From NCBI GenBank assembly GCA_021018995.1, contig CM037588.1:81999765-82063764 (forward strand): a stretch of DNA of 64,000 nt, read 5' to 3'. The position numbers and the translations under genes were made by a program. This DNA comes from Chloranthus sessilifolius. Its lineage: Eukaryota; Streptophyta; Magnoliopsida; Chloranthales; Chloranthaceae. Within the stretch, counting starts at the first letter, position 1, and each line of letters starts with the position of its first letter. Below are positions 12,510 through 46,264 of the stretch, one piece after another. Under the pieces are notes generated by a model. The model did not search any database. It had not been told where the DNA came from and worked only from the letters and a program-made list of their open reading frames with translations.

Positions 12510-13886
12510 TAGCTTGTAGAACTTCTCCTTGAAATTTGGCCCTTTATTTTTATTTTTACTAACCATTTTTGCTCTTTTTTTTATAGTTTTTTTATTTTTC
12601 TCACCCCTACTTTTTTGTCATTTAGGAGCCTTAGCCGATTGGCGGGCCTACTTGTGCTTTGTCTTTTAATTTCATTTAAATTTCCATAATTTAAAGTGCC
12701 TTAGCTGATTGGCGGGCCTACATGCGCACTCATATTCCAACAGTGGACGCCGGCCCATAGTCGCGGCACAGGATCATCACCCCCGGCCTTTGAACTAAAG
12801 AAAACTTCCAAAAAAAGGAGAAAGCTTTGAAAAATATTTAATTAAAATTGAACCAAGTTAGGGAGCTTAATCAATTTGTTTTTACAGGGTAGATTTTAAA
12901 AGGGTGGGGATTAGGCAAACACACAAACACCCGGGTCTTAGTATGGCGGCAGCCCCTAGTGGTGATGATCCAGAAAAGTCTCAGCCCACCTAGAATCTGA
13001 GAAGGCGCTTGTGCCGAAGGTATATCAGGTGGGTTCCCATTCCAAAGCTTAAAACCCTTGGAGAGAGCGCTAACGAGTTATACCGAATTCAAACCCTTTA
13101 TGTGTGGTGAGGAGAGAATCAATCACCAAAAAATAGCTTACTTTCTGGAAGCCTAGCTTCCATAAAAACAAAAAAAAAGAGACTCATTTCGGGTGTTGGT
13201 GGCTGTTGCCATCAGTTCTAGAGCATCAGTTTTTACCTAGCAAAACTATTAGTTGCACCAGTGCAAAAAAATTGGAATTTATAACTAGCGCAACTAATAG
13301 TTACGCCAGCTTCAAAATCCAAGTTTTTACCTTGGCGCAACTAATAGTTGTGCCAGTGTAAAAATGTGCCCCTGCCACCTGGGCACAGGTATTAGTTGCG
13401 CCAGGTCTGTTTAAACACCAAACCAGCCTGAATCACCTCCCGAATCCCCTGATCAGTGTGCTTAGTGCCTTGCTTTAGGCCCCACCATCTTCGACACCCA
13501 ATACGCCCCCACCAGTCAAAAGAGGGCAACTTCTTTTTGGCTCATTCCGGGGGATCGGGTTGTTTGCCTCGATTTCTATGCCTTCAATAGATCAAAGGTT
13601 CTCCTTCGATTCTTTCGAAGTGCATCAGAATCGTAGCCGCGGGACTTAAATTAGGGTACGAGTTCCATCCGAGAAGGGAATTCTAAGGCCTCGAAACCTT
13701 ATTTTTCAAAAAACTTTTTCCAAAAAAAATCAAATCAAAAAAATATTAAAAAGCAAATCAAAAACCCAAAAAAAATAGTTTGTGGTGCTGGCACAACGGC
13801 ATCATCTTGCCCTCCGCCGTCCCATAGGGGAAGAAGGAGGAGGATTTTTGGGCCTTATCCAAGGCACCCTTACCCAACCCATTCCC
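12510..13886 (+). other. Element D untranslated leader
   Basis: About 1.4 kb without a convincing gene. It contains a direct repeat of 'ccttagcygattggcgggcc' at about 12630 and 12701, a homopolymer-rich stretch at 13690-13770, and the first palindrome cluster at 13236-13406. Its composition differs from the Pro-rich coding sequence that follows. Confidence 0.55.
13236..13406. repeat. Palindrome cluster 1 of element D (four copies, ~47-bp spacing)
   Basis: Four imperfect copies of a palindrome with core GCGCAACTAATAGTTGCGC begin at about 13239, 13286, 13333 and 13382, so the spacing is 47, 47 and 49 bases. The sequence between them is not conserved. The best copy here is at 13333-13355. Each could form a hairpin or be a two-fold protein site. 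Confidence 0.85.
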
Positions 13887-14659
13887 AAAGAATGTCATGG
13901 GTAATGGACCTGGCTTACGCCGATCCCAACTCATCCCTGCCACATTCTTCAACCCACTCCCATTCGGGATACAATTTTTCCACCACCCCCCTCACCCAAC
14001 CCCCCCTTTACCGTTATCAGCCCGTTTGGTGACCCCATCTTCCCAACCGATACCTCCCAAAATATCCAAAGCCCAACCCCCATTCTCCATCTTTTGCCCA
14101 ACCCATACGCATGCTAAGTCCAACCCATTTCCCTTCCACATCCACACAAAACCCATTCTCCCAATCCACATCCATGCCCCATTTCCCATCTTCTCCCTAT
14201 AGGCCCGATCCACCCACATTCACATACACCACTTCCTCCCTATCCAACCCCCCACAAATCTACCCATCTACCCGGGTCATGGTCGTTTTTACCAGGGCCA
14301 TGCCAAAAATTTTTCAAGCATCCACCCCTAACATCTCTAATCCTTCCACATCCTTTGCCCCACCTCAACTCTGCAATCCACCCTATACCCTACCTCTTAC
14401 CATGGCCATGCCCGATCATACCAGGGCCATGCCTAATTTCCCCTCCATCCCAACTCCACCACCCACATCCAATCCTTCCTCCATGACCATGATGGAGGAG
14501 ATGTTTCAAGCCTACTCCATATGGAAGGTTTCTCAAAACACCTCCCCTCCTCCACGCCCCATGTCCCTAAACCCATCTCACATCCTAGCCAATCTCCATG
14601 CCTCACTCCTCAATGACCCCCATCAACCCCCCATAATCCACACTATCCAAACTCTCATT

Positions 14660-15160
14660 ACCCACATTCCCCAAGGCCCCATGGCCCAACCTCCCACTAC
14701 TCATACACCCCAAGGCCAAATGGCCCAATCTCCAACCTCCCACATACCCCAGGGCCCATTGGCCCAAACCCCTTGTTCCCACATATCCCAGGGCCCCATG
14801 ACCCAATACCCCACCACCCAAACCTACCCAGGGCCCATGGACAAGACCTATCAAGGACCCTTGGGCCAAACCCATCATGGGCCCATGGCCTAAACCCACC
14901 AAGGGCCCATGGCCCAAATCCACCAAGGGCCCATGGCCCAGACCCACCAAGGCCCATTGGACCAAATCCATCAAGGGCCCATGGCCCAGACCATCAAGGT
15001 CCATTGGCCCAAATATACCCAGGCCCATTGGCCCAAACCCATCAAGGGCCCATGGCCCAGACCTACCCAGGGCCCATGGCCCAAACCTACCAAGGGCTCC
15101 TAGCCCAAACCCATCAATGGCCCATAGCCCAAAATGACCAAGGCTTCATGGCCCAAACCC
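14660..15160 (+). repeat. Coding minisatellite in element D gag (39-bp then 24-bp units)
   Basis: Tandem units encode a QGPMAQ peptide. The first four have a 13-residue period (IPQGPMAQPPTTH-like, 39 bp). The following dozen or so have an 8-residue period (HQGPMAQT, 24 bp). A one-base loss near 14990 moves the repeat to another frame. The GC-rich units open long reading frames on both strands, which are artefacts. Confidence 0.85.
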
Positions 15161-16979
15161 AAACCCAACACTCATACCTGCCACATTTCACCCAACATTC
15201 ACAGCCAGGTCAAGCCCATGCCATACCCCAAACCCAATTTTTCCATGGCCCCACACCCCAAGGCCATCTCCAAACCTTTCCCCATACCCAATGGCCCCAT
15301 CAGGCCCCACCCCAAAACCAAATTTCCATCACCCAACAAACCCTCCCTCACTCCTAATGGGCTCACCCAACCCCCACTCATGTCATTCCCGTCTAACTCG
15401 TACAACAACAACAAGAAAATCCCACCCTTACTACACATTATGCCGACCAGTAGTATGAGGAGGATGAAATTAGGAATAGTAGAGCCTACGCTAGGGCATT
15501 CACCAACCTCAACCCTGCTCCCATAATTGCCCACCCCCTGGTGACCCAGAGTGAAGTCCAACTAACGAACGAGAAAGCAGCCCCTATATCAAAATAATCA
15601 GAGCAGCTGAAAGAACAGTTTGATAAAATATAGAAGCAGCTGATGAAAATGGGTGGTGCTAAAAGTTATGCCATGAACTTCACAGATTTGTGCTTGTTCG
15701 CTGAGGTCCCCCTGCCCCCCAAATTTAAAATGCCAGCTTTCGACAAATATAATGGCACGGGCAATCCTATTGTGCACTTGAAGTCGTACTGTGGGGATAT
15801 GTGCCAATACGAAGGGGACGAAAGACTACTAATAAAAGTCTTTCAGAAGAGTCTGACCGGGCCGGCTTTGAGATGATTCACATCCTTAGAACCATCCATG
15901 ATAAAAACATGGAGGGACTTGGCACACCTCTTTCAAGAATAATATGTCTACAATATAGACATTGAGTCGCAATAGTCAGACTTGGCCCGCTTGAAACAAA
16001 ACCAAAACGAGACCTCAGCGACTACTTGGGACGTTGGAGAGCCCAGGCAGCTCAGGTCAGAAATAGAATACCTGATGATGAGCAGATTGAGATGATCTCA
16101 AAGAATACTCTGCTAGTGATCTTAGACTTTTTGGTGTGCCAGCAACAGTTCAGCTTTATTGATCTGGTGAAAAATGCTAACCGATGTGACGATGCCATCA
16201 GGGAGGGTCGTCTGAGTAAGAACATGCCAAGTGGACCCAGTGGGGTTAGGAAGTTTTTAGAGCAAAGGAACGATAAGAGAACAGGGGACGATGTCCAGAA
16301 CATTTCCAATACCAGGCCCAATAACAATACTACCTCATTTAAATTTCAGGCAGCTCCACTAGCACCCATTAGGCCTGAGCAGATGTAGAGAATAGGGAAT
16401 GGGCAAGGAATGCAAATGACTCCGGAGCAGAGGAGAGCCCGCTACGATTGAGTTTTTACGCCTCTAGGGCAATCATTGAGTGTACTTTTACCTTTATTAG
16501 TGGAAAAGGGATTAGTCACTATCCGTCAACCGCAACCTCCTCCTCACCCGATCCTAAAGAACTATGACCTGAATACCCACTACAATTTTTATCAAGGTCC
16601 GGGTCACCCAATTGATCGCTGCTTCCCATTGAAGCACGCAATCCAGGATTTGATCGATACCGAGAAATCATTCCCCCTGCACCTTCTCAGCATGCTAATA
16701 TTAACCAAGTGCCACTACCCCCACATTCTGCCGGAAGAGCAGGCCCCAGACCCACCATCAGAATGATAGAAGATGAGGAGGAGTTTGAATTTAACCCATC
16801 CAATTATATCAGTGATTGGGAGAGTTATGTAGCACCATTGTCAAGAAACATGGAAGAGAGGAACATAGGGGTAATTGAACCCCTAAATTTATCAAAATAT
16901 TTCCCCAACTCGACCTCATAAATTGAACCCTTGGATCTTAGGGCATACTTTCCATCCACCACCCGTCAATTATGTACAT

Positions 16980-17370
16980 ATCAATGCATACCAACCATAC
17001 ACCACCACCCCCTGCAATTACCCGATAAGCCAACAGGCCCCCAATCCTACGCCCACACCCTCCAGTTATCAATGGGCCACACCCACCCCATTTCCCCCAG
17101 TTCAACTACCGGCAAACTCCACTGCCCCCATCAATTACCCAATAAGCCATCAGGCCCCCAATCCCACACTCGCACCCGTCAATTATCAATGGCCGGCGCC
17201 CATCCCATCACCCCAAGTGCCGCCTGCGAACTCCAACACCCCGATCAATTACCTAATGGCCCATCAGACCCCCTATCTCCCGCCAGCGTCCACCAGCTAT
17301 CAATGGCCTACTTTTACCTCCTTCCCTCCAATGCCACCACCCTCAAGCTTCACCACCCCTATCTGGCCTA
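16980..17370 (+). repeat. Pro-rich tandem repeat between gag and protease of element D
   Basis: Three units of about 38-39 codons each carry the pattern NYPISHQAPNPT ... YQWP ... PSPQVPPANS. The units have diverged but stay aligned. It forms a low-complexity linker between gag and protease. Confidence 0.75.
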
Positions 17371-17526
17371 CTTTTTCCACCCAACCCGCTATCACAGAAA
17401 TAAATCAGGTGTTGCCCACACCACCTGAGTGGACAGTGCAAGTGCCTCAAGTACCGGTAGCCATACCTTTCCAGCTCTCGGGACCAACCTATGATCCTTA
17501 TCAGGTTCCGCTAAGCTATGAGTAAA

Positions 17527-18851
17527 TAGATGTCAATACCGGCAACAGCAACAGAGAAGGAGCAGTGGACTTTGTCACATAGTCTGGGAGGATATCGAAG
17601 CAACCAGAAGCATCAGCAGCAGCACAGGCCCAACCAGAGGGGAAGAAAGACATCGCTATGAACCCCTTCGAAAAAATGAGTTGGGAACATATACTAGAGA
17701 CTCAACTGAGAAGAATGCTCGCCCATATAACCGTATGGGATCTGTTGATAACGTCCCCACTCCATTTTCAAGCATTAATGGGGCCATTATAAAATGCACA
17801 TGTATCACTCCAAGTTAGTCTAGATGAAGGGCAGATAATTGGGCAAGTGATGGCTCCAAATGCCATTTCATTCTCGAATGCTGATTTACCTGAAGAAGGG
17901 TGTAGCCACTCTAAGTCATTAAATATAATCGTTGAGTCTGGAAATATGATCATTCCCCTGGTTTTAATTGATAATGGGCCCGCATTGAGCATACGTCTGT
18001 TAGGAACTGCCGCTAAGATTGGGGTTAATCCATGCATGCTGAGGCCCACCAGAACCAGTGCAAGAGGGTTTGACAATACCAGGAGAGAAATAATGGGAGA
18101 AGTTGATCTTGAGCTATTGATAGGGCCAATGACCTTTTCCATCTTATTCCAAGTCATGGATATCAAATCTTCATTTAATCTATTGTTGGGGTGCCCGTGG
18201 TTGCACGAGGTCGGAACCATACTTTCCACTTTGCACCAGAAACTCAAGTTTGTGTTTGGGCACAAAATTATTACAATCATTAGTGAGGGGCATAGCGAGA
18301 AAGAAAAAGCCACCAATAGTGTTGAAAAACCCAATGTGCTAGATATATCGCACACCGCTGAGGACGTTGACCTCCACAATTTTGAATATGAGGTATTGGC
18401 AATACTCCCAGAGCACTTAGAGGGCATCATGCCTAAAACAAGAGGCGGTATGGTAGCGGCGATGGCTATGTTCCAAAAGTTAGGCTATCAGAAAGGTCGA
18501 GCGCTCGAGCCCCGATTATAAGGCAGAAGAGAGCCAGTTGTTGCTAAGGGGTATAAGGTCAAATTCGGGCTAGGATATAAGCCCACGGAGGAAGAGGTCC
18601 GAGAGGCCAAAGAGAAAGCCAGGGTTGCCGCAGAAGCAAGATCTCGAGGAATCAACATAGAAGAGAAACCTTGCCGCAGGCCGCACATCAAGGAATCCTT
18701 CGTCAGCGCAGGGGTCGTAAAGATCGACCGAAATGGGGTAACCCATTTGACCCCACACAAACCCATGGCCCCAATACATCCCACGTGTCCCCAGATCTCC
18801 CTTCCTAGCTTGGAGATAGATTTGGCCATGTTATCCCTTTTCGAGGAATGA
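17527..18851 (+). pseudogene. pro: Element D aspartic protease with G-patch-like tail, broken
   Basis: The retropepsin domain spans about 17850-18300: LNIIVESGNMIIPLVLIDNGPA at the active site, then FDNTRREIMGEVDLELLIGP, FQVMDIKSSFNLLLGCPWLHE and LHQKLKFVFGHK. Tat proteases normally read V(L/D)DNGSA at the catalytic aspartate. Here it is IDNGPA, so the Asp is kept and Ser has become Pro. A G-patch-like segment follows (MVAAMAMFQKLGYQKGRALEP, FGLGYKPT), interrupted by a TAA at 18519-18521. The frame then stays open to a TGA at about 18851. The protease matures gag-pol; this copy is probably inactive. Confidence 0.8.
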
Positions 18852-19274
18852 TGACCAGTACCTGAATAAACTCCCCCTGTGATAAATCACCACAAAACTA
18901 AGTTATCATTTGAGGACATCATCTCAGACGAAATGGGGATCAACATGATGGAAGTTGACTCTAATGAGCCATACCAGTCAGCACCATCCATCCCAACAGG
19001 TAAAGGAGTGGCCCCTCAGGTACGCAACTGGACATCTTTGCCCCAAACTCTGAAAGCAGGGAGTGGCTTAAATTTTGGCACATGTTTCCCAAAAAAAAAT
19101 AGCCTATAAAAAGTGAGATAAGCCCTTAGCAGGCAATACCTTGTATATATAGTAACTCGCCTTGCTAAGGGTCCGTCTTCGAAGAAAACAAAAATCTCAA
19201 AAATATGGAAACAATACAAAATCCCAAAAATATTGAAAAAATCCAAAGTTCAAAAATATCATCATTTAAAATTC

Positions 19275-20912
19275 CAGAAAAAGTCTCACAAAATGATGCC
19301 TTAACCGAAATACCCGTCCCACATAAAAATCAACCCCTTTCTTGTAGAAATACAAGAAGAGGTAGGAGTTACAAGTCTGGATGAGGATAGTCCTTTGGAG
19401 GAGCTCCCCAATGAGCTCCTTGACCGGTTCACTAACTTTGAGCATGGCCCTACCCCCATTGTCGAGGAAACTGAAGACGTCAATTTAGGAACTGAGGAGA
19501 TTCCCAGAATAACCAAAATTGGAACGTCGCTATCTCCTGAAGAAAGGAAAAGCATGATCAACTTCCTTCGGTCATACCAAGACATTTTTGCCTGGTCCTA
19601 CGAGGACATGCCTGGTCTAGACACTGATTTGGTTGAGCATGAGTTGCCTCTCTACCCTGATATGAAGTTGGTTAAACAGAAGCTGAGATATCTCCGACCC
19701 AAGTGGATGCTGAAAGTCAAGGATGAGGTCATCAAAAAGTATGATGCCGGATTTCTCATGGTATCTAAATACCTGCAGTGGCTAGCTAATATCGTGCCTA
19801 TACCAAAGAAGGATAGAAAGGTCCGCATGTGTATCAATTTTCAAAACTTGAACAAGGCGAGCCCAAAGGACGATTTCCCATTGCCACACAATGACATCTT
19901 GGTCGATAACACTGCTAAGCACGGGATGCTTTCTTTTATGGACGAATTCTCTAGATATAATCAGATAAAGATGGCAAAGGCAGATCGAGAGAAGACTGCA
20001 TTCATCACTCCGTGGGAAACCTTTTGCTACCGAGCCATGACATTTGGACTGAAAAATGCCGGTGCAACATACCAAAGGGCTATGACTGCACTGCTTCACG
20101 ACATGATGCACTAGGAAATTGAGGTATATGTCGATGATATGATAGCCAAGTTACCAGAGTGAGGCAATCACTTGGTAAACCTCCAGAAACTATTTGAGAG
20201 GTTGAGAAAGTATAGGTTACGCCTGAACCCAAAGAAGTGCGCTTTTGGTCCTATGTCAAGAAAATTGTTAGGGTTCATCGTTAGCAGGAGAGGGATCGAG
20301 GTCGACCCAGTTAAAGTAAAAGCTATCACTGAGATGCCACCACCATCTACCAAGAAAGAAGTCAGAGGGTTCCTGGGTAGAATATAATATATCAGTCGGT
20401 TCATTACACAACTAACTCCAATCTGCATGCCGATCTTCAAGCTACTAAGGAAGAACTTGCCCGTTGAATGGAACGACGACTGTCAGGCAGCGTTCGATAA
20501 AATCAAAAGCTACCTCCTTAACCCACCAATATTGGTATCACCTGGGCCGGGAAGACCACTCTTAATGTACCTCTCCACGACAGATGTTTCAATGGGATGT
20601 GTCTTAGGGCAGCATGACGAGACGGGAAGATGAGAGTAGGCCATTTACTATCTAAGCAAGAAGTTTATCGATTATGAAATATGCTATTCTCATCTAGAGA
20701 AAGCATGCCTGGCTCTTATATGGGCTACTCAGAGGCTCCGCCATTACTTACTATCTCAAGCAGTTCTACTTTTAGCCCGAATGGACCCGTTGAAATACTT
20801 GTTCGAGAAGCCTGCTCTCACTGGGCAGACTGCACCCTGGCAGCTCTTATTATCTAAGTTCGACATCACGTATGTCACTTAGAAGTTGATTAAGGGGCAG
20901 GCACTCGCCGAT
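19275..20912 (+). pseudogene. pol: Element D reverse transcriptase and RNase H, broken
   Basis: The reading frame of the protease resumes with LSPEERKSMINFLRSYQDIFAWSYEDMPGL (19540-19620) and goes through the RT fingers and palm: PIPKKDRKVRMCINFQNLNKASPKD, SFMDEFSRYNQIKM and YVDDMIAK, so the catalytic aspartates are present. Thumb and connection follow (GFIVSRRGIEVDPVKVKAI, FLGRI). The first RNase H (20540-20890) is degenerate: YLSTTDVSMGCVLGQHDETGR, then YYLSKKFIDYE and LIWATQRLRHYLL. Nonsense codons at about 20112, 20160, 20385, 20631, 20637 and 20881 sit mostly where the family has Gln, Trp or Arg. RT copies the element RNA into DNA in the cytoplasmic particle. Confidence 0.88.
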
Positions 20913-21017
20913 CATCTTGCCGACAACCCTTTGCCCGATTATGAACCTTTGAGAACTGAGTTCCCAGATGAAGATATCTTGTTCATGACGGAAGACTATA
21001 TTGAGGAGGCAGAGGAA

Positions 21018-21430
21018 TCATGGGTAATGCACATTGACGGGGCAGCAAATGTCGAGGGTCACGGAGTTGGCGCCATTATGATTTCGCCAAAAGGATCCCA
21101 TGTACCAGTCTCTATTAAGCTCAATTTTCCTTACACAAACAGCATGGCTGAGTATGAAGCTTGGGCCGCTAGTCTGTAGGCGGCTCTCGATTTGAATATA
21201 ACTCACCTCTGAGTGTTTGGCGATTCATAGTTAATCATATGTCAGATGAACAATGACTGGAAGATGAAAGATGATAAACTGATCCCCTATCGTGAACACC
21301 TCAAGGATCTGATAGCTTGCTTCCAAGACATGACATTCTCATATGTCCCCCGGTAAGGAACCGTTTTGCCGATGCACTGGCAACTTTGGCGTCAATGATA
21401 GAAATCCCATACGGTGTTGAGATGAAGCCG
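21018..21430 (+). pseudogene. Element D second, archaeal-type RNase H (aRNH), broken
   Basis: A second RNase H fold follows the gRNH: WVMHIDGAANVEGHGVGAI (catalytic Asp), TNSMAEYEAW (Glu), VFGDS (Asp), then LKDLIACFQDMTFSYVPR and FADALATLAS. Possession of both RNase H types is a known mark of the Tat lineage. Stops at 21177, 21211 and 21229 replace Gln or Arg codons, and a one-base shift near 21352 moves the frame. Confidence 0.82.
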
Positions 21431-21584
21431 ATCATGATCGAGTAGAGGAATGTGCTGGCCTTCTCCCTCCAGATTGAGAAACCTATGAAGCCTGATGATG
21501 AGCCACCTTGGTTCTCAGATGTCAAGAATTTCCTCAAGACCCTAACTTTCCCTGAGGGTACATCCAAGAAGGACCGACGAACCA

Positions 21585-22757
21585 TTCAACGTCTAGCGGC
21601 AGGCTGTCATTTGTGGGGAATGCCTGTATAAGCGGTCATATAATAACATCTTACTCAGGTGCCTTACTGAAAGTGAAATGACCAACATCATGAAGGAGAT
21701 CCATGAAGGAGTATGCAGAGCCCACGTCAGGGGTCACATGCTTGCTAAGAAAATTCTGTGGCAGGGATACTTTTGGACCACTATGGAATCAGATTGCTGC
21801 AAACATGTCCAAAATTGCTATAAGTGTGAGGAACACTCCAGTCTAATACATGCTCCTACCATTGATCTACACTGCATGACCACTCCTTAGCCATTTACTA
21901 CCTGGGCCCTTGATGTCGTCGGAATGATTAATCCAAAAGCATCGAACAGACATCAGTTCATCCTCGTTGCCATTGAATACTTCACCAAGTGGTCAGAAGC
22001 GGCATCATATGCCAACATCACGGCCAGTCACATTGAGAAGTTCCTCAAGAGTAATATTATGTGCCGATTTGGAGTACCCAAAGATTTCATCACATACAAT
22101 GGCACAAACTTTACGAATAAGCACATCCGAGCCTTCTGCGAGCAATACAAAATCAAGCACCATCACTCATCCCCCTATCGGCCTCTAACTAACGGAGCCG
22201 TGGAAGCTACGAACAAGACAGTCATCTTCATCCTAGAGAAAATGGTCGTCACTTACCGGGATTAGAGCAAAATACTATCATTTACCTTATGAGCCTACAG
22301 AACGTCGATCCGTACTCCTATAGGGGCAACACCATTCTCCCTTGTGTATGGAACTGAGGCCATCCTACTAGTTGAGGTTGAAGTACCCTCATTCCGAATC
22401 CTTATGGAATCAGGCTTACCTGAAGCAGAAAGAGAGAGATCTCACTTCGAACAATTAAACTTATTGGACGAGAAGAGACTCCTAGCCTTGTGTCACACTC
22501 AAGTTTACCAGGGGCAAACCGCATGCGCTTACAACAAACGTGTCCACGGTCGAGATGTGAAGATAGGAGACACTGTGTTAACGAAGATCTTCCCATCCCT
22601 CCATGCCGATCTGAGAGGAAAGTTCAAGCCGAACTTGGAAGGACCTTACGTCATCCGAGAAGTGCTACCAAGATATGCCATCCACCTCGCCACCATGGAC
22701 GAAGATCATCTTCCTAAGCCCATCAACACTGGATATGTCCGACGGTTCTACTCTTAG
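21585..22757 (+). pseudogene. Element D integrase, broken
   Basis: The HHCC zinc-binding region reads EIHEGVCRAHVRGHML ... NCYKCEEH. The core has TWALDVVGMI (first Asp), then FITYNGTNF where the family reads ITDNGTNF, so the second catalytic Asp has become Tyr, and NGAVEATNK (Glu). The C-terminal GPY-type module is KFKPNLEGPYVIRE, and the frame ends at TAG 22755-22757. Stops occur at about 21888 and 22263 and at the Trp of 'LWAYRTS' (about 22291). With one catalytic residue gone and several stops it cannot insert DNA. Confidence 0.88.
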
Positions 22758-24077
22758 TCTATCACGTCAAGGTAAGTATTGGTGAAACAAATACGTGACT
22801 GCTTAAGAACCACCTAAAAGAGGCCATCATTCCAAACATAGTAGCCAAAAAGCTTCCCTAAGAATAATGATATCCCTTGCTACCCCATTTGAGCTTGGGC
22901 CTTTCTTTCAATAACCCACTTTCCCAAAAAAAAATATATATGTGTACATATATAAAAAAAGGGAAGAAAAGTTACTATCATGGAGAATCACGGGACATGT
23001 ATAGTAAAACCCCCAGGGAAGGAAGTATGTCAAGAAAATTAAACCCACATCAAGGAAACCCTTTTTGCCAAGCATACCTTCAAATACTAACCTAGCCCAT
23101 GGCCAAGCTACACCCTGAAGGAAGCCCTCTTTTTAGGTTCACAAGCAGTCATAATATCTGTTAAGTCAACACAAGCCGAGTTGTGAGACTACACCAGAAC
23201 CCCATCTAGCCGGCTATGACGGAATCGACGTCTATGTCGTGGCTTTTGAAAAAATGAAAGAAAATAAATAAAATAAAATAAAAATAAAAATATAAGCTCA
23301 AAGCAAGACGGACGTGGTGAAAACCCGAAAGGGCATTACAGGTAAAAACAGTGAGTTTATGCGGACCAGGTGAAAACTCGAAAGGGCGCCTGGGGTAAGA
23401 TAGTTAAACCCATGGACGTGGTGAAAACTCGAAAGGGCGTCACGGGTAAAAAAGGAGATAAATAAAAAAAAAGGAGAAAAGAAAAGAGAAAAATTTGAAA
23501 AGGAAAGGTTTGGACTGATTGAGAAGATTGATGTTTAAAGAGCCTTACTCTCCCTGACCTCTTTTAGGGGCCGCTCATGTTAGTTCGAATCGAGTTCCGA
23601 CCAAAATTGTTTTCATAAAATTGCTTTGTCAAACGTATGACTCAAGGTAGGGAGAAAGGTTTGACTCAACCCAAGGGGATGGACGTTCCAGCCTTGGTAA
23701 GACTGTTGAAACTCTTTCAGAATCAACTAGTCAAAGAGGGGTTCGACCACGGTCAAAAGGGGACCCAGGGTTTCACAAGGTGATTAAGGCACCGCACGAA
23801 AAAAAAGATATGTATATGCACAAAACAAAAAGACCAAAAAGTCTATGTAGATGTATATAATAAACTACCTTTCATTTACAAAATGCATCGCTTACAGCAC
23901 ATCCCAAAAATATAGCCAATGTGACGACTAGAGTGCTTTCCTTTTTACAAATAAATGAAAAACAGTAAAAACATGAAGAAAATATGTATACAAAAAATGT
24001 GTGTATCTGTAAAGGGGTTTTTATGCCCCTTTTCTGTGTATCTGATCTGTGCGAAACGTTCTGTGTGCAGGAAGGAG
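22758..24077 (+). other. Element D spacer after pol, with a triple repeat
   Basis: No gene is supported. A ~51-bp unit with core GGTGAAAACYCGAAAGGGC occurs three times, at about 23311, 23363 and 23414. A-rich and pseudo-microsatellite stretches lie at 22925-22960 and 23255-23290. The region leads into the 3' end of the antisense DUF7745-like gene. Confidence 0.6.
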
Positions 24078-25548
24078 TTAGCAGCCCAGCTCGCGCTTCA
24101 ATGCGCTAATCTCAGCATGAAGGTCATCTTCCCGAACATTCCACTCAGTCAGCCAGTGACCATCCAAGCTCTTATACCTCTTCCGAGAAGAGTCGGCGGC
24201 TCCAAAAGCAAAGCTCAATGAACCCTTCAAATGGAGGACCTCGCTCTCTGCTATTTCTGCTCTACCCTTTTCATGTACCAAAAGTTCTTACAGGACCCTC
24301 TTCTCGTCCACAAGTAGCTCGATACGAGCTCGGAGTGTTGTCTCCTTTTATTGGTCAGGGGCCTCCAGTATCAATGATCTCTGCCAAATACCATCAACAA
24401 TAGGCTGCTGAGTCAACAGCCAAGCCTCGTACTCAAGAGAAGCCTGAGCCGAATCTCTCTGCTCGATATCACACATCAGCGTCGAGTGATGCATCTCCAA
24501 AAGAGCAGCAATCTGATCTATGTCTCTAGAGAACCCCTTAGAAAAGATCAAATCACATAGAGGGGGTTTGGCGTAGCAAGGCACCTGCTGAGGGCAGCCA
24601 AATTGGCACAATACCCAGAATGGGAAGTAGAAGGTACTGCCAGTCAATCCTAGGAGGGTGATGCCCTCATGGTCTCTAGAGTGAACTATTGGGAAGGTCC
24701 GGTCCAACCAAGGAAGCCTCCATGTCAGCTCGGCATCGGTCAACTAAAGTTTCAGAGCTGACACATCGCCCTGTGGAAGCAAATGGCACCTACCCAAAAA
24801 GCACTGAGCCGCCTCACCTCGAGCAATATAAAAGTGGGGCATAGGCCCCATGATAGCGAGGTGCTCACCCAACTAGACCTGAAACAACAAGGGGCACCCC
24901 CGAAGGCCCTCCACCTTGCCCAAAGCAAATGAATCAAGGCCTTGATACAGCTCGGTGAGCACCAAATGCATCATGGATTGGCCCTCCTCCAGCTCAGTCA
25001 AAATGTCATAAATTGCCAAGGAGAAGCTCTCCTCCTCGAAAAAAAAAGAGGATTTCAGAGATGAGACCGAGTGCTAGAGCTTTCACGTTGAAAATGTTCC
25101 TAATAAGCAATTTTCGAAGACTTTCATCACCGAAAAGTTCTTTGAGGAATTTTAGCAAACACCTTGTGGGCCCCCCGATGAGACTTTTCTCATACTCAAG
25201 TTTCTTCAAATCGAGAGTAAGGTGGATGGATTTGGAGTAGCCCGGCTGAGGTGTGACTCTTACATGACCCCTATGAAGCTTTAGGCCAGACAGATTGGAT
25301 ATCTCCTCGAGGGTTGGGGTTAGCTCCTGCTTCCTAAAATGGAATACATGGGAATTCACATCCCAAAATGAAGCGGCAGCGAAAAGGAGTTCCCACCATG
25401 GAGGAACCTCTAGAAAGGAAGGAAGGCGAGATAGCCCAAGGGGCTCCAAGTCGGCGTGCTCACTCTCATTCAAGCTCCCAAGCCAAGCTATTAGAAATTT
25501 GGGCCCCAGGCCCAAGGGGGGGGGAAATTGGCTCCACGCCCTCCACAT
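24078..25548 (-). pseudogene. Element D antisense gene 1: DUF7745-like protein, broken
   Basis: A minus-strand ATG at 25548 opens a frame of about 490 codons ending at TAA 24078-24080. Diagnostic blocks in order are FLEVPPWWELLFAAASFW, FHFRKQELTPTLEEISNLSG, ALALGLISEI, then (after a frameshift) LAIYDILTELEEGQSMMHL, LYQGLDSFALGKVEGLRGCP, LTDAELTWRLPW and GITLLGLTGSTFYFPFWVL. These match the plant domain I know as DUF7745, usually linked to transposons. The C-terminus is helical and charged (ALKREL, RARIELLVDEKRVL). The frameshift lies in a T9 run (A9 on the plus strand, about 25040), and there are stops near 24870, 24746 and 24347. No introns are evident. It is encoded against the direction of gag-pol. 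Function unknown. Confidence 0.72.
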
Positions 25549-26262
25549 AAGTGAGGATTAGAAAGCGGGTCCATGAACATACAAAGATCTTCTGAGAAGA
25601 CAAAAATTGATGTTTGGTGATGGACTCACCTTGGAAAAGCAAGAGCAAAAAGAACTGGTCAAAAGGGCCAAGATAAATAAAAAAGAAGTGATTTTTGGAC
25701 TAACTCGGGTATATAAGGACACACTGCTCCCCAGGTTAAACAGGGCGCAACTATTAGTCACGCCAGTGTTTTTCTCCCCCAGGTTGAGCCTGGCGCAACT
25801 ATTACTTGGACCAACACATTTTGGTCCCCATTTATGCCTGACGCAACTAATAGTTGTGCCAGTACATATTTTCTAGGATTTCAACTGTTAGTTGCGCCAC
25901 ACTACAGTCCCCCCTCTTCAGCCATCCCAGGACCCAGCTGTGGGGACTTACACCCCTTTTGTTTTTTCACACACCTTTCACTAATAGTTTGGCAATTATT
26001 TTGTTTATTTATATGCAAGATTGATCCTACATCAAAGCATATGCCCAAGGAGTCACTTTCTGAGAACATTTTGGGCAAACACATCCTGTAGAGAAATAGG
26101 TCTGATGCAAAGAGATCATGGCATAAAATCAAAGCAGAAATACTAAAAATATTTTCTAAAAATAATGATCCAAAGTATCACATCAACCATCTCCAAAATG
26201 ATTAAACAAATCCAAATCGGATTCCAAAGATTACTATGTTTTCAAAAAAAAAAACTAAAAGT
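25549..26262. other. Spacer between the two antisense genes of element D
   Basis: Non-coding. It holds palindrome cluster 2 (25740-25900) and a TATATA-like motif at about 25710-25716, about 165 bases upstream of the start of the DUF7745-like gene on the minus strand. That motif could be its promoter, but this is weak evidence. No other feature is visible. Confidence 0.5.
25738..25902. repeat. Palindrome cluster 2 of element D (four copies)
   Basis: Copies of the GCGCAACTAATAGTTGCGC-type palindrome start near 25743, 25790, 25838 and 25880, spaced about 47, 48 and 42 bases. The clearest is at 25838-25861. The cluster lies between the 3' end of the PMD gene and the 5' end of the DUF7745-like gene. 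Confidence 0.85.
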
Positions 26263-35716: not shown

Positions 35717-36407
35717 TGTTAAACAACTGTATCATATGTATTCTACTCATGTTTGTTTTGTAGTTTTTGCATAGTTTATTCTTCTCTATTTTTAGTCATG
35801 TTTACACTAAATTCGAAAAGTTATAATATGTGAAAAATTAACTCGCAAAAGAAAAAAGTACATTTCGAAAAGTTTAATTTTCTTTTCGAAAAGGATCTGG
35901 ACCTGTAACTAACTACTCGAACAGATTGTTTTGCTTTTCGAATAGTTGTTTCTGAAGCCTTTTCCTTTTCGAAAAGTTGGTTCTGAAGCTATTTGCTTTT
36001 CGAATGGTTCTGATGCCATTCTCTTTTGTAAATAGGACTGTTTTAAACTTTTTGAAAACTTCAAAGATACCTTGTGAATATCATTTTGAGCATATTTAAA
36101 CCCTTTCGAAGCAAGGATTTCATATTCGAAAGCCTTCTCAGAGCGTCCTGTTTCACAGAAAACCCTTTTTCTTTCCTTCCTTGCGTGTTTTTAGAATTCA
36201 GCCCCAATTTTCTTCATATTTGTTCGACGGATTGCACTTGAAGAGAGGGACTTTTTGCTTCTGATTCTGGTGGACTTCATCAAGCGATCAACAAGTTCAA
36301 ACAAAACCCTAGATTTCGGTATTTTTCTGTGCGTTTCCTCTGTTTGTGTTTTGCAAATTTTAATTTGGTATCAGCATTCATTGGGGGAGATTCAAACAAA
36401 GTTTTAA
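35717..36407 (+). other. Element E spacer before the env-like gene, with TTCGAAAAG array
   Basis: Non-coding. Between 35810 and 36130 the motif TTCGAAAAG or TTCGAATAG recurs about nine times, mixed with TTCTGAAGC. The same motif fills the promoter side of the LTR (28430-28660). The region could drive or regulate the env-like gene that starts at 36408. That is inference. Confidence 0.6.
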
Positions 36408-38801
36408 ATGGGGAAAGCTGAAAAATCCTTGGCTGCAATGTTCCAAAAATCTTCTGCTAAGAAAATTAGCAAATCCACTCCAAAAGGAAAAGCAAAAACC
36501 TCAGCTAAAAGGAAACTATCGATGGATAAAGCTGACAAGATTGAGAGAGGAAATAAGGTTAGATATGAGGAACCCACCCCCACAGCTACTGCTAGTCCTG
36601 AGCCTGAGCTTCCTCCTCTGCCTTTGCATTTGGTACTGCGAAACCCATTCATTGAAGCTCAGAAGCTGATCCCAGAGTTTATTGTTGATGAGACCTTTTT
36701 CTACAACAAACCTGAATGTCAGTTATCTTTGAAATACATTAAGGATGCCTCACTGAGCAATATCCTAACTTCGCTTCCAGAGAAACTTTATCCGCAAATG
36801 GTGAGATTATGGTACCAAAACTTGGTAAAAGTGAAAGAGAAGGATGCTGATGTCCCTACTCTTGTAATTTTCATTGATGATTGCGATTTAATTGTCACTT
36901 ATGAAGACATTGGAAATGCTTTAGGGATACCATTTCAATATGATCCTGCTGGTCTGTTGGCCGCATAAGAAACAACCTCTTTTAGAGAAATGGCTGCACA
37001 TTTAACCCAAGGCATAGTTGGAACTGGACAATCCATCATGAGGAGAGACTTAGCACCTCAATTTTTGCTGATGGATTCTATTTTGAGGGGATGTTTTTAT
37101 GTCACTGGGCACAGCCAGGAAAGAAGGACACCAATTTTAGAGGCTCTTTTTCATTTCTCTAAGGGGAAATTCTTCATTGCCCCTATGTTGATTTTTGAAG
37201 TCATGGCTGATATTAGTACCAAGCTGAAAAAGGAGCAGAAGTTAGCTGGAATACCATTTGGTAGGTTGATCACAGCCCTACTAAGAGCCAAATTTGACAT
37301 TGATGAGCAAGAGCCATTTGAAGTTATATCTCCTCATGCTTTTGGGAAAAAGGCTTGGACTACAAGCCAAACCATGTTGAATAGAATGAGGGAGGAAGGC
37401 CAGCCCTCATTTGCCATTGAACACCATACAGACCACCATTACCCAAGAATCTGCTTTATCGGACCACAGGTGACCGGCTCTTTGGCACCTATTTCAAGCG
37501 GTGACATTGAACAAAATTTGTCCTTCTGGTGACCAGCTCTTGTTGCATCCATTGTTGAAGAAGTTATCATCTTACCCACTTCACCTAGCACAGCTCCTAT
37601 TCCCTCACCCATTCCAGCAGTCCCATCTCCCATAACCAACATAATCCCAATTGCAGATCCCCCCTCTACACCAACCACTCCAGCCATACTCACACTACCA
37701 ATTTCTCCCAACAATGTCCAAGATTTAGCCCCAGATTTTGTTGAACAATCTCCTAGCACTCCTCTTCTTCAAAGTTTCTCAGGATCACCTGCCCATTCAA
37801 CTCATACACCTGAAATAACTCATACCCCTGAACCTGAGATATTCACTACAGAGGCCTATTAATCATTGATGGGATCTATCTTGGAGAATATTGGGCTTGA
37901 ATCTGTACCTATACCTAACCCTCCTCATTTCACCCATTTGGCTACTTTCCCCTTCACAGCCATTTCACCCATTGCACCTCAACCATCTACTTCAATTTTA
38001 CCAGCCCCTACTCTGCATACCACACCCACACCTGAATCAATTAGCCAAATATTTACCTTTCTCCAATCCATCCAAGCCCAACTACAGATCAACACCGACA
38101 ATCAGTCTGTGACAAATTCCCTTCTCAAAACCTTAGCCTCCACATCCCAAACAACCACCTTAGCCACTGTATCTGCTGTTGCTGACCATGCTACCCAAAC
38201 AGATTCAGAGGTAATAGTTTTAGATTCACCCATCGCCGTTGTGTCTGATCATGCTACCCAATTTGAACTTGAGGCACTACCTTTGGATACACCTACACCC
38301 ATCCTTAATGTCGCTAATCAAGCCGCCCAAACAGACCCTGAGGTCATACTTTTGGACTCCTCTGCTCCCACTGCTGGCATACCTTTGGTCCCCTACCACT
38401 CCATTCTCATTCCCAGATTTGCCACTCTCAAAAGGGCTATGGAAGAGGACCCTTATATCTGTCGCGATGTACTCAAGGGGTTAGCTGATCTACAAGATTA
38501 CATTAGAACCCCTTATGAAGACCAGATTCGGAAATTGGAGTTGTTCATGAAATTTGAGAGAGAAAAGATGCAGGACCTGCTAGGTCAAACTTTTCAGATG
38601 GTTAGGAATGAGTAGCACAAGGTCACCATGTTGCAAGCACAACTTGAGCAGGAAAAATTGAGGGCTACTAGACTTGAAAAGTATATTGGCCTCACCAAAA
38701 AGATCAAATCTCAGGAATACAACGAGCTGCAAAACACAATCCAGGAGAAGGCTAAATCGAGTTCAGACTCTAATACTGATTTTAGTTACACTCGGCGATG
38801 A
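36408..38801 (+). pseudogene. Element E env-like gene (Athila post-pol ORF), broken
   Basis: One frame of 798 codons from ATG 36408 to TGA 38799-38801, interrupted by TAA 36966, TGA 37530, TAA 37859 and TAG 38613. The N-terminus is Lys-rich (KKISKSTPKGKAKTSAKRK). A conserved globular block follows (LRNPFIEAQKLIPEFIV, RLWYQNLVKVKEKDADVP, GIPFQYDP, SQERRTPILEALFHFSKGKF, FGRLITALLRAKF) that matches element A's gene. A Pro/Thr-rich middle holds three ~22-residue repeats around ATQTDSE/AAQTDPE. The C-terminus is strongly heptad-like (LQAQLEQEKLRATRLEKYI). I see no signal peptide or transmembrane segment, so a true envelope is unlikely. Function unknown. Confidence 0.75.
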
Positions 38802-40624: not shown

Positions 40625-42441
40625 TGTTGAGAACTAGAAAATACCATTTTCCACCCTTTAACCTGGGCCTTGATAGACCTTTGAGAAAACTAAATAAGTG
40701 TTTTAAGTGCTTGTGTTACAGCTAATAATAAAGACAGGTTTAACCATGAAAGCAGCCTAAAAGTGCCAAAAAGATGTTGATTCATGTTGATCCAAAGGAA
40801 GAAAGAGAAGGGACAACCTCACGAGCTGTCAAAATGCCTAAACTAAAGAGGACAAAGGCCTTGTTGTAACCTGGAAAGAGGTGTGGAGCTATTCGAACAG
40901 AAGAATGCATTACGGAGTGCTTTTCGAAAAGAATCTAAACTTTTGAAAAAGAACCTGAACTTTACGAAAAGAACTAAAAGCTCCAGGCTTAGTTTTTGAA
41001 GAGCACCTGAACTCTTCAAAAGGATTTCTGACCTATTCGAAAAGAAGGGAACTCCTTGCGAACAGCACCAGAACTATGCGAAAAGAGCTTCAGAAGTCAC
41101 AGTACCATGCGAAAAGTTTCCCAAACTATGTGAAATGGTATTCTAAAGATTCCTAGCATCTGCAAGGGTAATTTAGTAATCTTTTACAAGTGCCCCGATG
41201 CATTTAAAAACCCAGGGACATTCCGAAAGATTCTGAGCATGAACTAATGGTATATTCCACCCCATGTGAGCACCCGAAGATGAAATCAATTGGCGGGAAC
41301 TTTTAGAAGTTCTAACAGATTTTTGAAATACATAACAGAATTGATGCTTCTGTCATCTGATTGGTTGAACCAAATGAAGCAGTTTTGATTGGCCAAAACA
41401 GATCTGGATCCTTGTGCTCGACTCCCATTGGTTGATACAGATCTAACCAATTTTGATTGGTCGATACACATCTGAGCTAGACTTGGGGGAAATTATAAAT
41501 AGATGAACCATTTGCCCAATTTGGGCATCCAGATTTTGAGTTTCATTTCTACTGCCTCATTTCCAATTCAGATAGCTTGTCTGTAATTCAAAAGAGAATT
41601 ATATTCAAGACTACAAATCCGAGAGTTGTTTAAGCTGTGCTCTATAATTGTAATGGTGAATTTGAAAAGGTTGCTGTGAACCATACGTTCTCAATTGGAT
41701 TCGTGTTGAGGGTTCCCAGTGATCTCCTTATTGCACTAGACTCCTTTAGATTTACTATTTTTTAAGCAATTTCCCTTAATTCATTATCCCTGTGAGAATT
41801 TGTGTTTGTAACATAATCTCTCACAGAATATGTTGTGGTTTTTCTCGTTTTAGAATTAAGGGTTCAGATTAAAGACTATTGGATGGTTTGTGGCCATTGA
41901 AGTGGACAGACCATAACCATAAGTTTAACCCTAACCCTTGAGTTAGATTACTTTCTCTTGCATCTGTGCTTGAAGCCAGATGAAGATTGGATCACATCTC
42001 ATTTGATCTACATTTATTCTCATTCTTTTTGCATCAAGGACAAAATCAAAGTTAGATATTATTTCTCCATTCTTATTAATTTACATCAAAATCTCCCCAA
42101 CTCAGATCTGGATCACTTAGTTTTAATTTTACTTTTATCATTTTGTTAATGTGACAAATTCAACCTCCCATATTATTTGCTCTATAGATAGGATCAGAGG
42201 CCAGATCTGGTAGCTCGGATCTGGAGGTTTATCTTACATTTTAAATAAATTCCCTGTGGACGATCTTTTACTCACTTACATTTAAAACTTGCTACAATTG
42301 GCCCTGATCTTACAGGCTAATTAATTTCTCTCTGTGCTGATATTTCCTTATTCGTTCTAATTTTCCAAATTCAGTAACATTCATCATTCGCAAGTATGTT
42401 TTCAACATACAAATAAATCATGCACACTTAGTGCAACAACA
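40625..42441 (+). repeat. Element E 3' LTR
   Basis: Starts TGTTGAGAACTAG, ends GTGCAACAACA, and is followed by the target duplication gactc. It lacks about 56 bp present in the 5' LTR (junction at about 41583), where the ends of the missing piece share a short CTG. TATAAATA lies at about 41494-41501. Confidence 0.95.
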
Positions 42442-42446
42442 GACTC
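42442..42446. other. Target-site duplication of element E, right copy (gactc)
   Basis: GACTC immediately after the 3' LTR, identical to 28142-28146. Confidence 0.95.
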
Positions 42447-43014
42447 GGCACTGCGAGATTGGATATCGGTATCCCCCTATCCTGATGCCAGTAATCATGG
42501 CCTAATCGATGGGCATCAAAGTCATCTCCGCATACGACATGTGAAAGGTCATCGTCTCGAGGCGAAACCGTTCGATTAGAGCCTTCAGATAGGCGGCGTC
42601 AGCCCTCATGGCGAGGTAGGATAGAAACTCTCCAAAGCCCACCTGTGTCAGCAAGACCTTCACTACGGGGGGGACATAGAGGTAGAACTCATGAAAGTCA
42701 ATCCACCCCCCACGGAACACAATGTTGGGCAGGTCCTGAACTCAAGAAAATAGGCATCAAACCGCAGTGGTAAAGCAAAAACTGCATAATGGAAATAAAT
42801 TGAACCTCTCTTTTACCTTGCCCGCTATCCCGAAATTTGAAATATGGGTATGCTGTTGGTGAAGGAGGCCGACCCGGGCGGCCTCGCCCTGCATCTCGAG
42901 CCATGGGCCCACTCTTCGATCTACCCAGATGAACTGCTACCCCCGTGGGTCGTACACTATCTCAGGCCCCTCCTCGTGGCCCTCCTCAGGAATATGCTCA
43001 CCCTCGCCTGACAT
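42442..43014 (-). pseudogene. Element D antisense PMD gene, exons 1-2a
   Basis: The 5' part of the PMD gene. ATG at 43014; exon 1 is 43014-42817, exactly 66 codons, ending AAG before GTAAAAGAG. The intron is 42816-42736 (81 bp) and ends TTCAG. Exon 2 starts DLPNIVFRGGWIDFHE at 42735. Exon 1 contains VDRRVGPWLEMQGEAARVG and HQQHTHISNFG, and exon 2 contains LIERFRLETMTFHMSYAEMT, which aligns with the PMD motif 'ERWRPETHTFHLPCGEMT'. A TAG (codon 26) interrupts exon 1 and a TAG follows MPID in exon 2. Element E then splits exon 2. The two halves of exon 2 are one base out of frame even with E removed, so decay occurred elsewhere in the exon as well. Confidence 0.8.
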
Positions 43015-43481
43015 GCCGGGGTAACAAAAGGCAACCACAATAGAATAGATCAATGGTAAAGGACGGTTTTTGTGCTACATACCAAGGGAAGGTAAGTATG
43101 CTCACCCTCTCGCTATTCATTGTCAGGAAGTAAAGATGCACACATGCAGAGGCAAAAAAAAATAAAATATTAAGCACAAAAAACAAAATCCCTTTTAGGT
43201 TGAAAATGCAAAAAAAAATCCCCTCCTTTCTATCTTAGAATGTAAATAAAAAAATAATAATAAAATAAACCCCACTTTCTTTTATGTTAAAAAATAAAAA
43301 CCATTTTAAAAAAAAATCGTCATCAAAACCAAAGGGTCCTTCCTTTATGCAAAAAAAGGGGGGTTTTAGAAAAAACAAACAAAAAATCCTCTTCTTCATG
43401 GTTCATAAAAACAAAGAAAAATAATAAATAAAGCCCCTTTTCTAAGCACCAAAAAAACATAAACAAAAATTATTATTGTTT

Positions 43482-43518
<37 letters not shown>

Positions 43519-45632: not shown

Positions 45633-46052
45633 TGTAAACACCCACATTTAGCCCAACGCCCGATCGAAACACCTTTCAAGAGAGATGCAATTCTGAGCTT
45701 TGGATGACATGTATGGAACCTTTAGGATTCCCCCTAGAACCCTTAGGAACCTTTCCAAACCCTTAGGAATCACCCTAGATCCGTTAGGAACCTGACTCAA
45801 ATCTTTAGAAATTAATCCTAACCATTAGAACCCGTTCTGAACCTAAACCTAACCTTATGAAGCAAATGGTTGAGGAGGGGTGCACCGAAAGTAGCTACGA
45901 CCCTCTATTATGATTGAATCTCATACCATTGAAAAGTAAAGGTCGTCAGCTTTCCAACGGTCCAAGAATCACCCCAATCGGAGGTATACATCAAAAGATA
46001 TAATAAACCAAGCCTAGAGGAAAAAAGTGTAAATTAATGTGGGCCCCCTAGG

Positions 46053-46264
46053 GATTTGGAGCAACTAATTGTTGCGCCAGTTATAATTTTGCCTGGCACA
46101 AATATTAGTTGTGCCAGGCCAATTCTCCCAGATTTTAAGCCTAGCGCAACTAATAGTTGCGCCAAGGTTAAAGTCGGGCCCCACCCTCGCGAACTAACTT
46201 CTAAGCACTGTTTAAAACTATTTTACTGTACATTTGCTTGGTGTAACTATTAATTGTGCCAGGC
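46053..46264. repeat. Palindrome cluster 4 of element D (four copies, inside the LTR)
   Basis: Copies lie at about 46056-46080, 46092-46118, 46141-46164 and 46237-46263. In the second copy both arms changed together (TGGCACAA with TTGTGCCA), which keeps the pairing. The cluster is about 280 bases upstream of the TATA box, so it sits in the U3 promoter region. Confidence 0.85.

What the first reader, a model, noticed from the sequence alone, without database searches (positions are those of the whole stretch)
13236..46264. Element-specific palindrome family in four clusters, about 47 bp apart, in all non-coding parts of element D
About 15 copies of a palindrome (core GCGCAACTAATAGTTGCGC, best copies 27 bp) occur at 13236-13406, 25738-25902, 43909-44020 and 46053-46264: leader, gap between the two antisense genes, upstream of the PMD gene, and LTR U3. 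I see none in A, B, C or E. Within clusters the centres are often 47-48 bp apart while the sequence between is not conserved, and at least one copy (46092-46118) changed both arms together (GGCACAA with TTGTGCC), which suggests selection for symmetry. Established parallel: VANC proteins of VANDAL transposons bind short motifs repeated in the element's own non-coding DNA and counter silencing. Inference: these palindromes may be targets of a dimeric element-encoded protein, for example the PMD or DUF7745 product, or RNA hairpins.
Basis: partly seen in the sequence, partly recalled or inferred. Interest (0 to 1): 0.9.

Follow-up and report, generated by a model that had tools for sequence, protein, structure and literature searches.

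The report
Phased palindrome arrays in a retrotransposon
A large plant jumping-gene family repeats one private mirror-image DNA motif in strictly spaced rows in front of its genes, most likely docking sites for a paired DNA-binding protein that switches the element on, which resembles a known trick of another retrotransposon group but is a new version of it.

Summary
The palindromes are real: 13 strong copies plus one decayed copy and a half-site, in the four clusters named, far above chance. In the host genome (2.17 Gb) the 19-bp core has about 43,000 places within 2 mismatches, against 0 for the reversed pattern. In 20 fetched loci 131 of 131 palindromes lie in the same four places of D-family elements: LTR U3, leader, and upstream of each antisense gene. 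Of close neighbours, 73 of 73 are 37-38 or 46-48 bp apart. Arms are more alike between copies than spacers and flanks, firmly so in U3, less surely in the smaller samples of the other clusters. Arms do not co-vary and show no G-U bias, which favours double-stranded DNA sites over RNA hairpins. Three of the ten loci that reach the antisense genes lack both yet keep U3 palindromes. Corrections: not every non-coding part carries them; no compensatory selection. The nested E/A family has its own palindrome on a 10.4-bp lattice in U3 and before E's extra gene. Closest precedent: Sirevirus (Ty1/copia) palindromic motifs in LTR and before ENV. Most likely arrays for a dimeric DNA-binding factor; host or element-encoded (VANC-like) is open.

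The parts
12181..12487 (+). remnant of D's 5' LTR (U5 end)
   Evidence: 276/309 identity to the end of the 3' LTR
12492..12509 (+). putative primer binding site, TGGCGACTC type
   Evidence: read directly after the LTR end; Ogre-type by recall, not tested
13236..13405 (.). leader palindrome cluster, 4 copies (centres 13249, 13297, 13344, 13392)
14111..22757 (+). decayed gag-pol of D (RT PF00078, RNase H, integrase rve)
   Evidence: Pfam
22758..24080 (.). convergent pol / antisense-gene gap without palindromes
   Evidence: 0 copies
24081..25557 (-). decayed antisense gene, weak DUF7745/PMD matches
   Evidence: PMD 8.2e-05 and DUF7745 3.6e-04 and 0.014, all below Pfam cut-off
25741..25901 (.). 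palindrome cluster upstream of the antisense DUF7745-like gene (centres 25754, 25802, 25850, 25888; last decayed)
   Evidence: TATA-like TTATATACC on the minus strand near 25715
26205..28146 (-). second antisense gene, part left of nested element E
   Evidence: open frames; no Pfam match at E 0.1 for the pieces 27072-27500 and 27711-28211
42442..43074 (-). second antisense gene, N-terminal part with weak PMD match
   Evidence: PMD 2.7e-04 at 42505-42741, below cut-off; contiguous with 28146 in relatives such as L031 and L034
43909..44020 (.). palindrome cluster upstream of the PMD-like gene: two near-perfect copies (43922, 44007) and a half-site (43959)
45633..47273 (+). 3' LTR of D, start inferred from TGTAAACACC after AAAGAGGGGCATC
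   Evidence: sequence read; 3' end from alignment to the 5' LTR remnant
46055..46263 (.). LTR U3 palindrome cluster, 4 copies (46068, 46105, 46153, 46250), about 280-490 bp upstream of the TATA box
46545..46552 (+). TATA box of the LTR (CCTATAAATAGAG)
28411..28566 (.). element E left LTR: 7 copies of a different palindrome CTTTTCGAAAAG (up to 2 mismatches)
35861..36059 (.). element E, between integrase and the extra gene: 6 copies of CTTTTCGAAAAG
36408..37529 (+). element E extra gene (two pieces with a stop between), very weak Transposase_32 match; homologue in A clearer
   Evidence: E 0.013 for 36969-37529, none for 36408-36965; 2.7e-08 for A's 4848-5330; both below Pfam's cut-off
40889..41085 (.). 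element E right LTR: 6 copies of CTTTTCGAAAAG
11799..11987 (.). element A LTR: 8 copies of CTTTTCGAAAAG, spacers different from E

Best explanation
The palindromes are double-stranded DNA binding sites for a dimeric, sequence-specific protein, arranged as phased arrays at the 5' side of the element's transcription units (LTR U3, gag leader, both antisense genes). Dimers would bind in rows on fixed faces of the helix and jointly activate, or shield from silencing, the genomic promoter and the promoters of the additional genes. Shown: motif, four-place architecture across copies, quantised spacing, conservation of arms over spacers and flanks (firm in U3), absence of arm covariation and of wobble bias. 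Inferred: that a protein binds, that it is dimeric, that the effect is transcriptional or epigenetic. Unresolved: whether the protein is a host factor (slightly favoured, because Sireviruses without the ENV gene keep their LTR motifs) or element-encoded; the first rival below is therefore a sub-case of this statement and the odds overlap.
For: 131 of 131 palindromes (18/26 or better) in 20 loci map to U3 (76), leader (25), PMD upstream (18) or DUF7745 upstream (12) (with three places of L038 moved to U3 after checking). 73 of 73 neighbours under 60 bp apart are at 37-38 or 46-48 bp, classes one helical turn apart. In U3 (21 clusters) arm positions outside the CpG slots are more alike than spacers and flanks even with every perfect copy masked.813 against .679 and .726, bootstrap intervals of the differences above 0; unmasked the direction is the same at all four clusters. 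Three stretches fetched by predicted position, not by motif, held 5, 4 and 3 palindromes of 21-25/26. No covariation; G-T 62, A-C 68. The E/A family has its own palindrome with 18 spacings on a 10.4-bp lattice, R 0.97. The U3 position resembles that of Sirevirus repeated motifs upstream of TATA.
Against: No binding, expression, methylation or small-RNA data. The 20 loci were chosen through perfect-core matches, with preference for places with several hits, which favours conserved copies; with perfect copies masked the intervals include 0 for the leader (both comparisons), PMD upstream against spacers, and DUF7745 upstream against flanks, with 6-8 clusters each. The palindromes resemble one another, so alignment out of register may raise their identity. 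Spacings are partly inherited by homology, so they are not 73 independent events. Spacers show weak residual similarity in the window, so part of the register may be old tandem duplication. That four clusters avoid the convergent gap could be chance (about 0.5, or 0.3 with R-U5 included, if four clusters fell at random in the non-coding parts; my arithmetic).
Confidence: 0.6

Rival explanations
1. VANC-like self-recognition: a protein encoded by the antisense genes (PMD or DUF7745 type; in E the Transposase_32-like gene) binds its own family's palindromes and removes silencing or activates its promoters in trans.
For: Motifs private to a family and reiterated in its non-coding DNA, as VANC targets are (PMC5735166). 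The E/A array turned over fast while the LTR around it stayed alike: 155/220 identity in the array against 0.87-0.89 elsewhere. Three loci without both antisense genes keep 3-4 U3 palindromes, as trans-served derivatives should. The motif stands before the antisense genes themselves, fitting autoregulation.
Against: No DNA-binding domain shown; PMD/DUF7745 matches are weak and no structure prediction ran. Known VANC motifs are not in the palindromes: YAGTATTAY 0 places in the window, AGTTGTMC 5 places, none in a palindrome. Sireviruses lacking ENV still have LTR motifs. The three loci fit a host factor as well.
Confidence: 0.3
2. RNA or single-strand structure: hairpins in the genomic RNA for packaging, dimerisation or processing, or sources of small RNAs.
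For: The clusters should all lie in the sense RNA (inference); single-strand folds are strong, z -4.9 to -7.3 for 4 of 4 stretches; Sirevirus palindromes attract small RNAs (Bousios 2016 as cited in PMC10760457).
Against: Any palindrome folds; no compensatory changes (15 against 18.6 expected) and no G-U preference (62 against 68). Small RNAs may follow from the structure without being its purpose.
Confidence: 0.1
3. Neutral tandem-repeat turnover, or intrinsically curved, nucleosome-positioning DNA, without a specific binding protein.
For: Weak residual similarity of spacers; tandem-like spacers in the E arrays; the E motif has T- and A-tracts in phase, which could bend DNA (inference); arm conservation not established beyond U3 under the harsh masking.
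Against: D's motif has no A-tract; U3 arms exceed spacers and flanks; same motif at four places in 20 loci and nowhere else in them at 18/26.
Confidence: 0.15

Closest known systems
Sirevirus (Ty1/copia) palindromic repeated motifs (PMC2829016; sections 9 and 19 read, passages elsewhere)
   Same: Element-specific dyad-symmetric motif, at least 8 and up to 32 copies, mostly in the upper LTR upstream of the TATA box and, in elements with an extra ENV gene, upstream of it; flanking sequence diverged.
   Different: D and E have Ty3/gypsy-type reverse transcriptase (RVT_1); no CGG-CCG core; D has two antisense extra genes and a leader cluster; spacing in steps of a helical turn (the parts I read give no phasing).
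VANDAL / VANC anti-silencing system of Arabidopsis (PMC5735166, PMC10398659; passages read)
   Same: Family-private short motifs reiterated in the element's non-coding DNA, with fast turnover; here self-recognition is possible but unshown.
   Different: DNA transposon; VANC motifs are 8-9 bp and the word stem 'palindrom' does not occur in either text; VANC has DUF1985/DUF287, here PMD/DUF7745.
Tat/Retand and Ogre elements with antisense or extra genes (PMC11963269: abstract, discussion and passages; PMC6317226, PMC9289625: passages)
   Same: Long pol-3'LTR region with extra, often antisense genes; PMD reported in 57% of Ogre elements.
   Different: No passage I read describes palindrome arrays; the Retand paper reports family-specific tandem repeats of unknown function.
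Repeated cis-boxes in plant LTRs such as Tnt1 box I (named in PMC2829016; otherwise recalled)
   Same: Repeated or symmetric U3 regulatory boxes.
   Different: Here the same motif also stands at the leader and before the antisense genes.

Membership tests
Sirevirus repeated-motif elements | Ty1/copia (Pseudoviridae) element | tested here: not met
   RT pieces of D match RVT_1 PF00078, E likewise; among the best protein relatives several are named Ty3-I or Ty3-G polyprotein
Sirevirus repeated-motif elements | CGG-CCG core in the palindrome | tested here: not met
   core is GCGCAACTAWTAGTTGCGC; one of the 13 Sireviruses also lacks it
Sirevirus repeated-motif elements | palindromes in the LTR before TATA and upstream of an extra gene | tested here: met
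   for D; 62, 67, 81 for E
VANC-type anti-silencing system | short family-private motifs reiterated in non-coding DNA | tested here: met
VANC-type anti-silencing system | element-encoded protein binds the motif and causes loss of methylation | not testable with these tools
   no binding or methylation data
VANC-type anti-silencing system | DUF1985/DUF287 protein | tested here: not met
   no such Pfam match among the decayed pieces scanned; pieces, not whole genes
VANC-type anti-silencing system | known VANC21 or VANC6 target motif | tested here: not met
Tat/Ogre-like Ty3/gypsy element | Ty3/gypsy-type RT and integrase, long region with antisense genes between pol and 3' LTR | tested here: met
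Tat/Ogre-like Ty3/gypsy element | PMD-type extra gene | tested here: inconclusive
   PMD 8.2e-05 and 2.7e-04 in two antisense genes, both below Pfam's curated cut-off
Tat/Ogre-like Ty3/gypsy element | dual RNase H and placement in an RT tree | not tested
   no tree made; second RNase H not looked for

The most novel reading that the evidence does not exclude
Ty3/gypsy elements of this host each pair a private palindrome with a private PMD/DUF7745- or Transposase_32-type protein that reads it: a VANC-like self-recognition system evolved independently in LTR retrotransposons, with helically phased dimer arrays and derivatives without the genes served in trans.
Probability: 0.27. Interest if true: 0.88.

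Novelty: new variant of a known kind. Interest (0 to 1): 0.6.

Why it matters
The Retand paper calls the function of the antisense genes of such elements unknown (PMC11963269, discussion). The palindromes offer a ready DNA bait and some 43,000 natural sites in one genome, so binding, silencing and co-evolution can be tested directly. If the palindromes are read by element proteins, a second, independent sequence-specific anti-silencing system exists; if by host factors, similar palindrome arrays in copia and gypsy elements point to a common regulatory logic.

Tried and rejected
Compensatory arm selection: tested on 14 and on 131 copies, no signal. RNA wobble: no bias. Left/right asymmetry of arms: 24 against 17 non-CpG mismatches, sign-flip p 0.36. 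RNA families: no match over the clusters. Relatives in viral contigs by motif or by protein: none useful (two stretches with one place each). Prokaryote genomes: the loose core pattern gave 14 stretches, one place each, about chance (some 30 expected by my arithmetic). Protein search with a translated cluster: 2 candidates, none passing; with the DUF7745-like piece: 252 candidates, none passing. E motif in more distant E-like relatives: 0 of 2 stretches within 2 mismatches; in L048 the expected place holds other, LTR-like sequence with a different GCCGAGGCAA-type palindrome, and L049 shows no cluster; so E's motif is known only from A and E. A's region before its extra gene has no E array. Insertion-target role: PMC6911290 reports only a slight palindrome preference at insertion sites (passages). 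Structure prediction never ran. Searches of the host genome with the E pattern and with D's U5 did not complete.

The bootstraps weakened the claim of arm conservation outside U3; for that I lowered the best explanation from 0.65 to 0.60 and raised the neutral rival from 0.12 to 0.15.

Literature searches for a printed description: (open-licence PubMed Central only). No listing or passage I saw describes such arrays in Tat or Ogre elements; Bousios 2016 and the 2022 VANC paper are not held.
Full report
OBSERVATION. The palindrome was scored as the 27-mer CCTGGCGCAACTANTAGTTGCGCCAGG. Thirteen places score 21-25 of 26; in 100 dinucleotide shuffles of the window the maximum was 18. A decayed copy (25888) and a half-site (43959) belong to the same rows. 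Copies per part of D: leader 4, gap upstream of the DUF7745-like gene 4, upstream of the PMD-like gene 2 (plus the half-site), U3 4; none in gag-pol, in the convergent pol/antisense gap, in the antisense genes or in R-U5. So 'all non-coding parts' is too strong.

ELEMENT. D is a decayed Ty3/gypsy element: RT, RNase H and integrase match Pfam. Its RT has 3252 database relatives, of which the best 120 were listed; those with a species name include Vitis, Rhododendron, Trifolium, Fagus and Theobroma. Two antisense genes give weak PMD and DUF7745 matches, all below Pfam's curated cut-offs. The 5' LTR survives as 309 bp, 276/309 identical to the 3' LTR. The 3' LTR start (45633) and the primer binding site are read from sequence. 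E (about 28.2-42.4 kb) is nested in the second antisense gene: relatives run on from D42444 to D28146 without it.

HOST GENOME. The window lies in a 2.17-Gb assembly. The 19-bp core has 43,011 forward and 42,760 reverse matches within 2 mismatches (the core equals its reverse complement but for the centre, so these are largely the same places) and none for the reversed control; only the first places, about 100, all on contig C1 and without mismatch, were listed. I fetched 20 loci of 9.9 kb chosen from those, with preference for places with several hits. They hold 131 palindromes of 18/26 or better; 131 of 131 lie in or within 500 bp of D-homologous matches and belong to U3 (76), leader (25), PMD upstream (18) or DUF7745 upstream (12) (three places of L038 re-assigned to U3). 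Four of the 20 loci cover half or more of the convergent gap (L025, L030, L033, L044) and have none there.

SPACING. Of neighbours under 60 bp apart, 62 are at 46-48 and 11 at 37-38 bp, 0 elsewhere; wider ones are 96-101 (14), 123, 130, 144 and 146. The two main classes differ by one helical turn, which fits dimers held on fixed faces of DNA. Many spacings are inherited, so this is fewer independent events than 73.

SELECTION. Mean pairwise identity between relatives was taken at arm positions outside the CpG slots, at spacers and at flanks. Without correction for how the loci were chosen, arms lead at all four clusters. With all perfect copies masked, a harsh correction: U3 (21 clusters) .813 against .679 spacer and .726 flank, differences .135 [.083.191] and .088 [.036.136]; PMD upstream (7) .875 against .824 and .744, intervals [-.124.166] and [.043.227]; leader (7) .854 against .772 and .819, both intervals include 0; DUF7745 upstream (6, two of them fetched by position) .789 against .605 and .740, intervals [.057.257] and [-.089.115]. 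So constraint is firm in U3 and only indicated elsewhere. CpG slots are less alike than the other arm positions in all four clusters as correctly assigned, as methyl-C decay predicts. Three further stretches, taken by predicted position in elements already chosen, held 12 palindromes at 17/26 or better, scoring 21-25; two were the intended DUF7745-upstream gap (spacings 48,47,48 and 48,48), the third proved to be an LTR (97,48,37,47).

NO COVARIATION. In the window's 14 copies pairing is 132/182 against 133.7 after re-dealing right arms. In 131 copies it is 1415/1703 against 1413.4, compensatory cells 15 against 18.6; within region classes 1415.6 and 20.0. G-T and A-C mismatches are about equal (62 and 68, other 72, in 65 imperfect copies). 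Thus the arms vary independently, as two half-sites would, and not as a paired stem.

COPIES WITHOUT THE GENES. Ten of the 20 loci reach the antisense-gene region. Seven show antisense-gene sequence (L031, L034, L036, L037, L039, L041, L044). Three (L025, L030, L033) pass from about D23.7 kb to D44.4 kb, lacking both genes and their clusters, but keep 4, 3 and 3 U3 palindromes. This fits a factor acting in trans, of either origin.

A SECOND FAMILY. A search for any palindrome family in the window gave D's motif (14 places), then one around CTTTTCGAAAAG (13, one of them in D) and an AT-rich one (11), against a largest family of 3-7 in 25 shuffles. With up to 2 mismatches CTTTTCGAAAAG has 29 places against 5.1 expected: 27 of 29 in A's LTR (8), E's two LTRs (7, 6) and the E gap before its extra gene (6); the other two, 2864 and 46979, look like chance. 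Eighteen neighbour spacings (A LTR, E left LTR, E gap) are 20-21, 31-32 or 52 bp, period 10.45, R 0.97; a random-spacing null gave 0 of 20,000, but if only two unit lengths are independent the weight is far lower, of the order of a percent (my estimate). A and E LTRs agree at 0.87-0.89 outside the array and 155/220 inside it, with 45 gap columns, while motif and lattice persist. Arms do not co-vary here either (138/180 against 141.1). Distant E-like stretches lack the motif (0 of 2). The AT-rich family at 53.6-54.3 and 61.1-61.3 kb was not pursued.

MECHANISM. Best reading: phased double-stranded DNA sites for a dimeric factor that couples the LTR promoter and the promoters of the extra genes, by activation or by keeping silencing off. 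Binding and effect are inferred. Host factor or element product is the main open question.

KNOWN PARALLELS. Sireviruses carry palindromic motifs in the LTR (117 of 127 in the upper half) and, only in elements with ENV, in the linker, there 77 of 79 upstream of ENV (PMC2829016). That is the same kind in another superfamily. VANC proteins bind 8-9-bp motifs in VANDAL non-coding DNA and induce loss of methylation (PMC5735166); here the binder is unknown. A passage of PMC10760457 notes that TE cis-regions are often arrays of sometimes palindromic repeats and that Sirevirus palindrome regions attract small RNAs. Hence 'new variant of a known kind'.

Noticed in passing
window 30662-30767 (-) and 7710-7811 (+): Rfam snoR71 matches above threshold in the gag-side regions of E and A, antisense to each element; either a retroelement-borne snoRNA-like sequence or an Rfam family seeded from such elements.
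   Followed up: no
L025, L030, L033 (host contig C1): D-family copies sharing nearly the same junction (about D23.7 kb to D44.4 kb) that removes both antisense genes: a likely non-autonomous subfamily.
   Followed up: partly
window 14768-15197: 24-nt tandem repeats in gag of D (14 overlapping copies of a 119-nt reference at 23-24-nt steps).
   Followed up: no
L036 5448-5795: Several overlapping matches to D44272-44408, a local tandem expansion between PMD upstream and the LTR.
   Followed up: no
L048, 1901 bases, element orientation about 690-750 and 1550-1600: Another LTR-like sequence with its own palindrome of TTGCCTCGGC / GCCGAGGCAA type.
   Followed up: partly
window 53591-54268 and 61142-61265: AT-rich GAACTTCGAATTT-type palindrome rows in the repeated part of a minus-strand element.
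   Followed up: no
window 373-1029 and 47277-48165: Sequence near the window's left end and right of D is homologous and itself repeated (495-bp step), perhaps the repeat into which D inserted.
   Followed up: no
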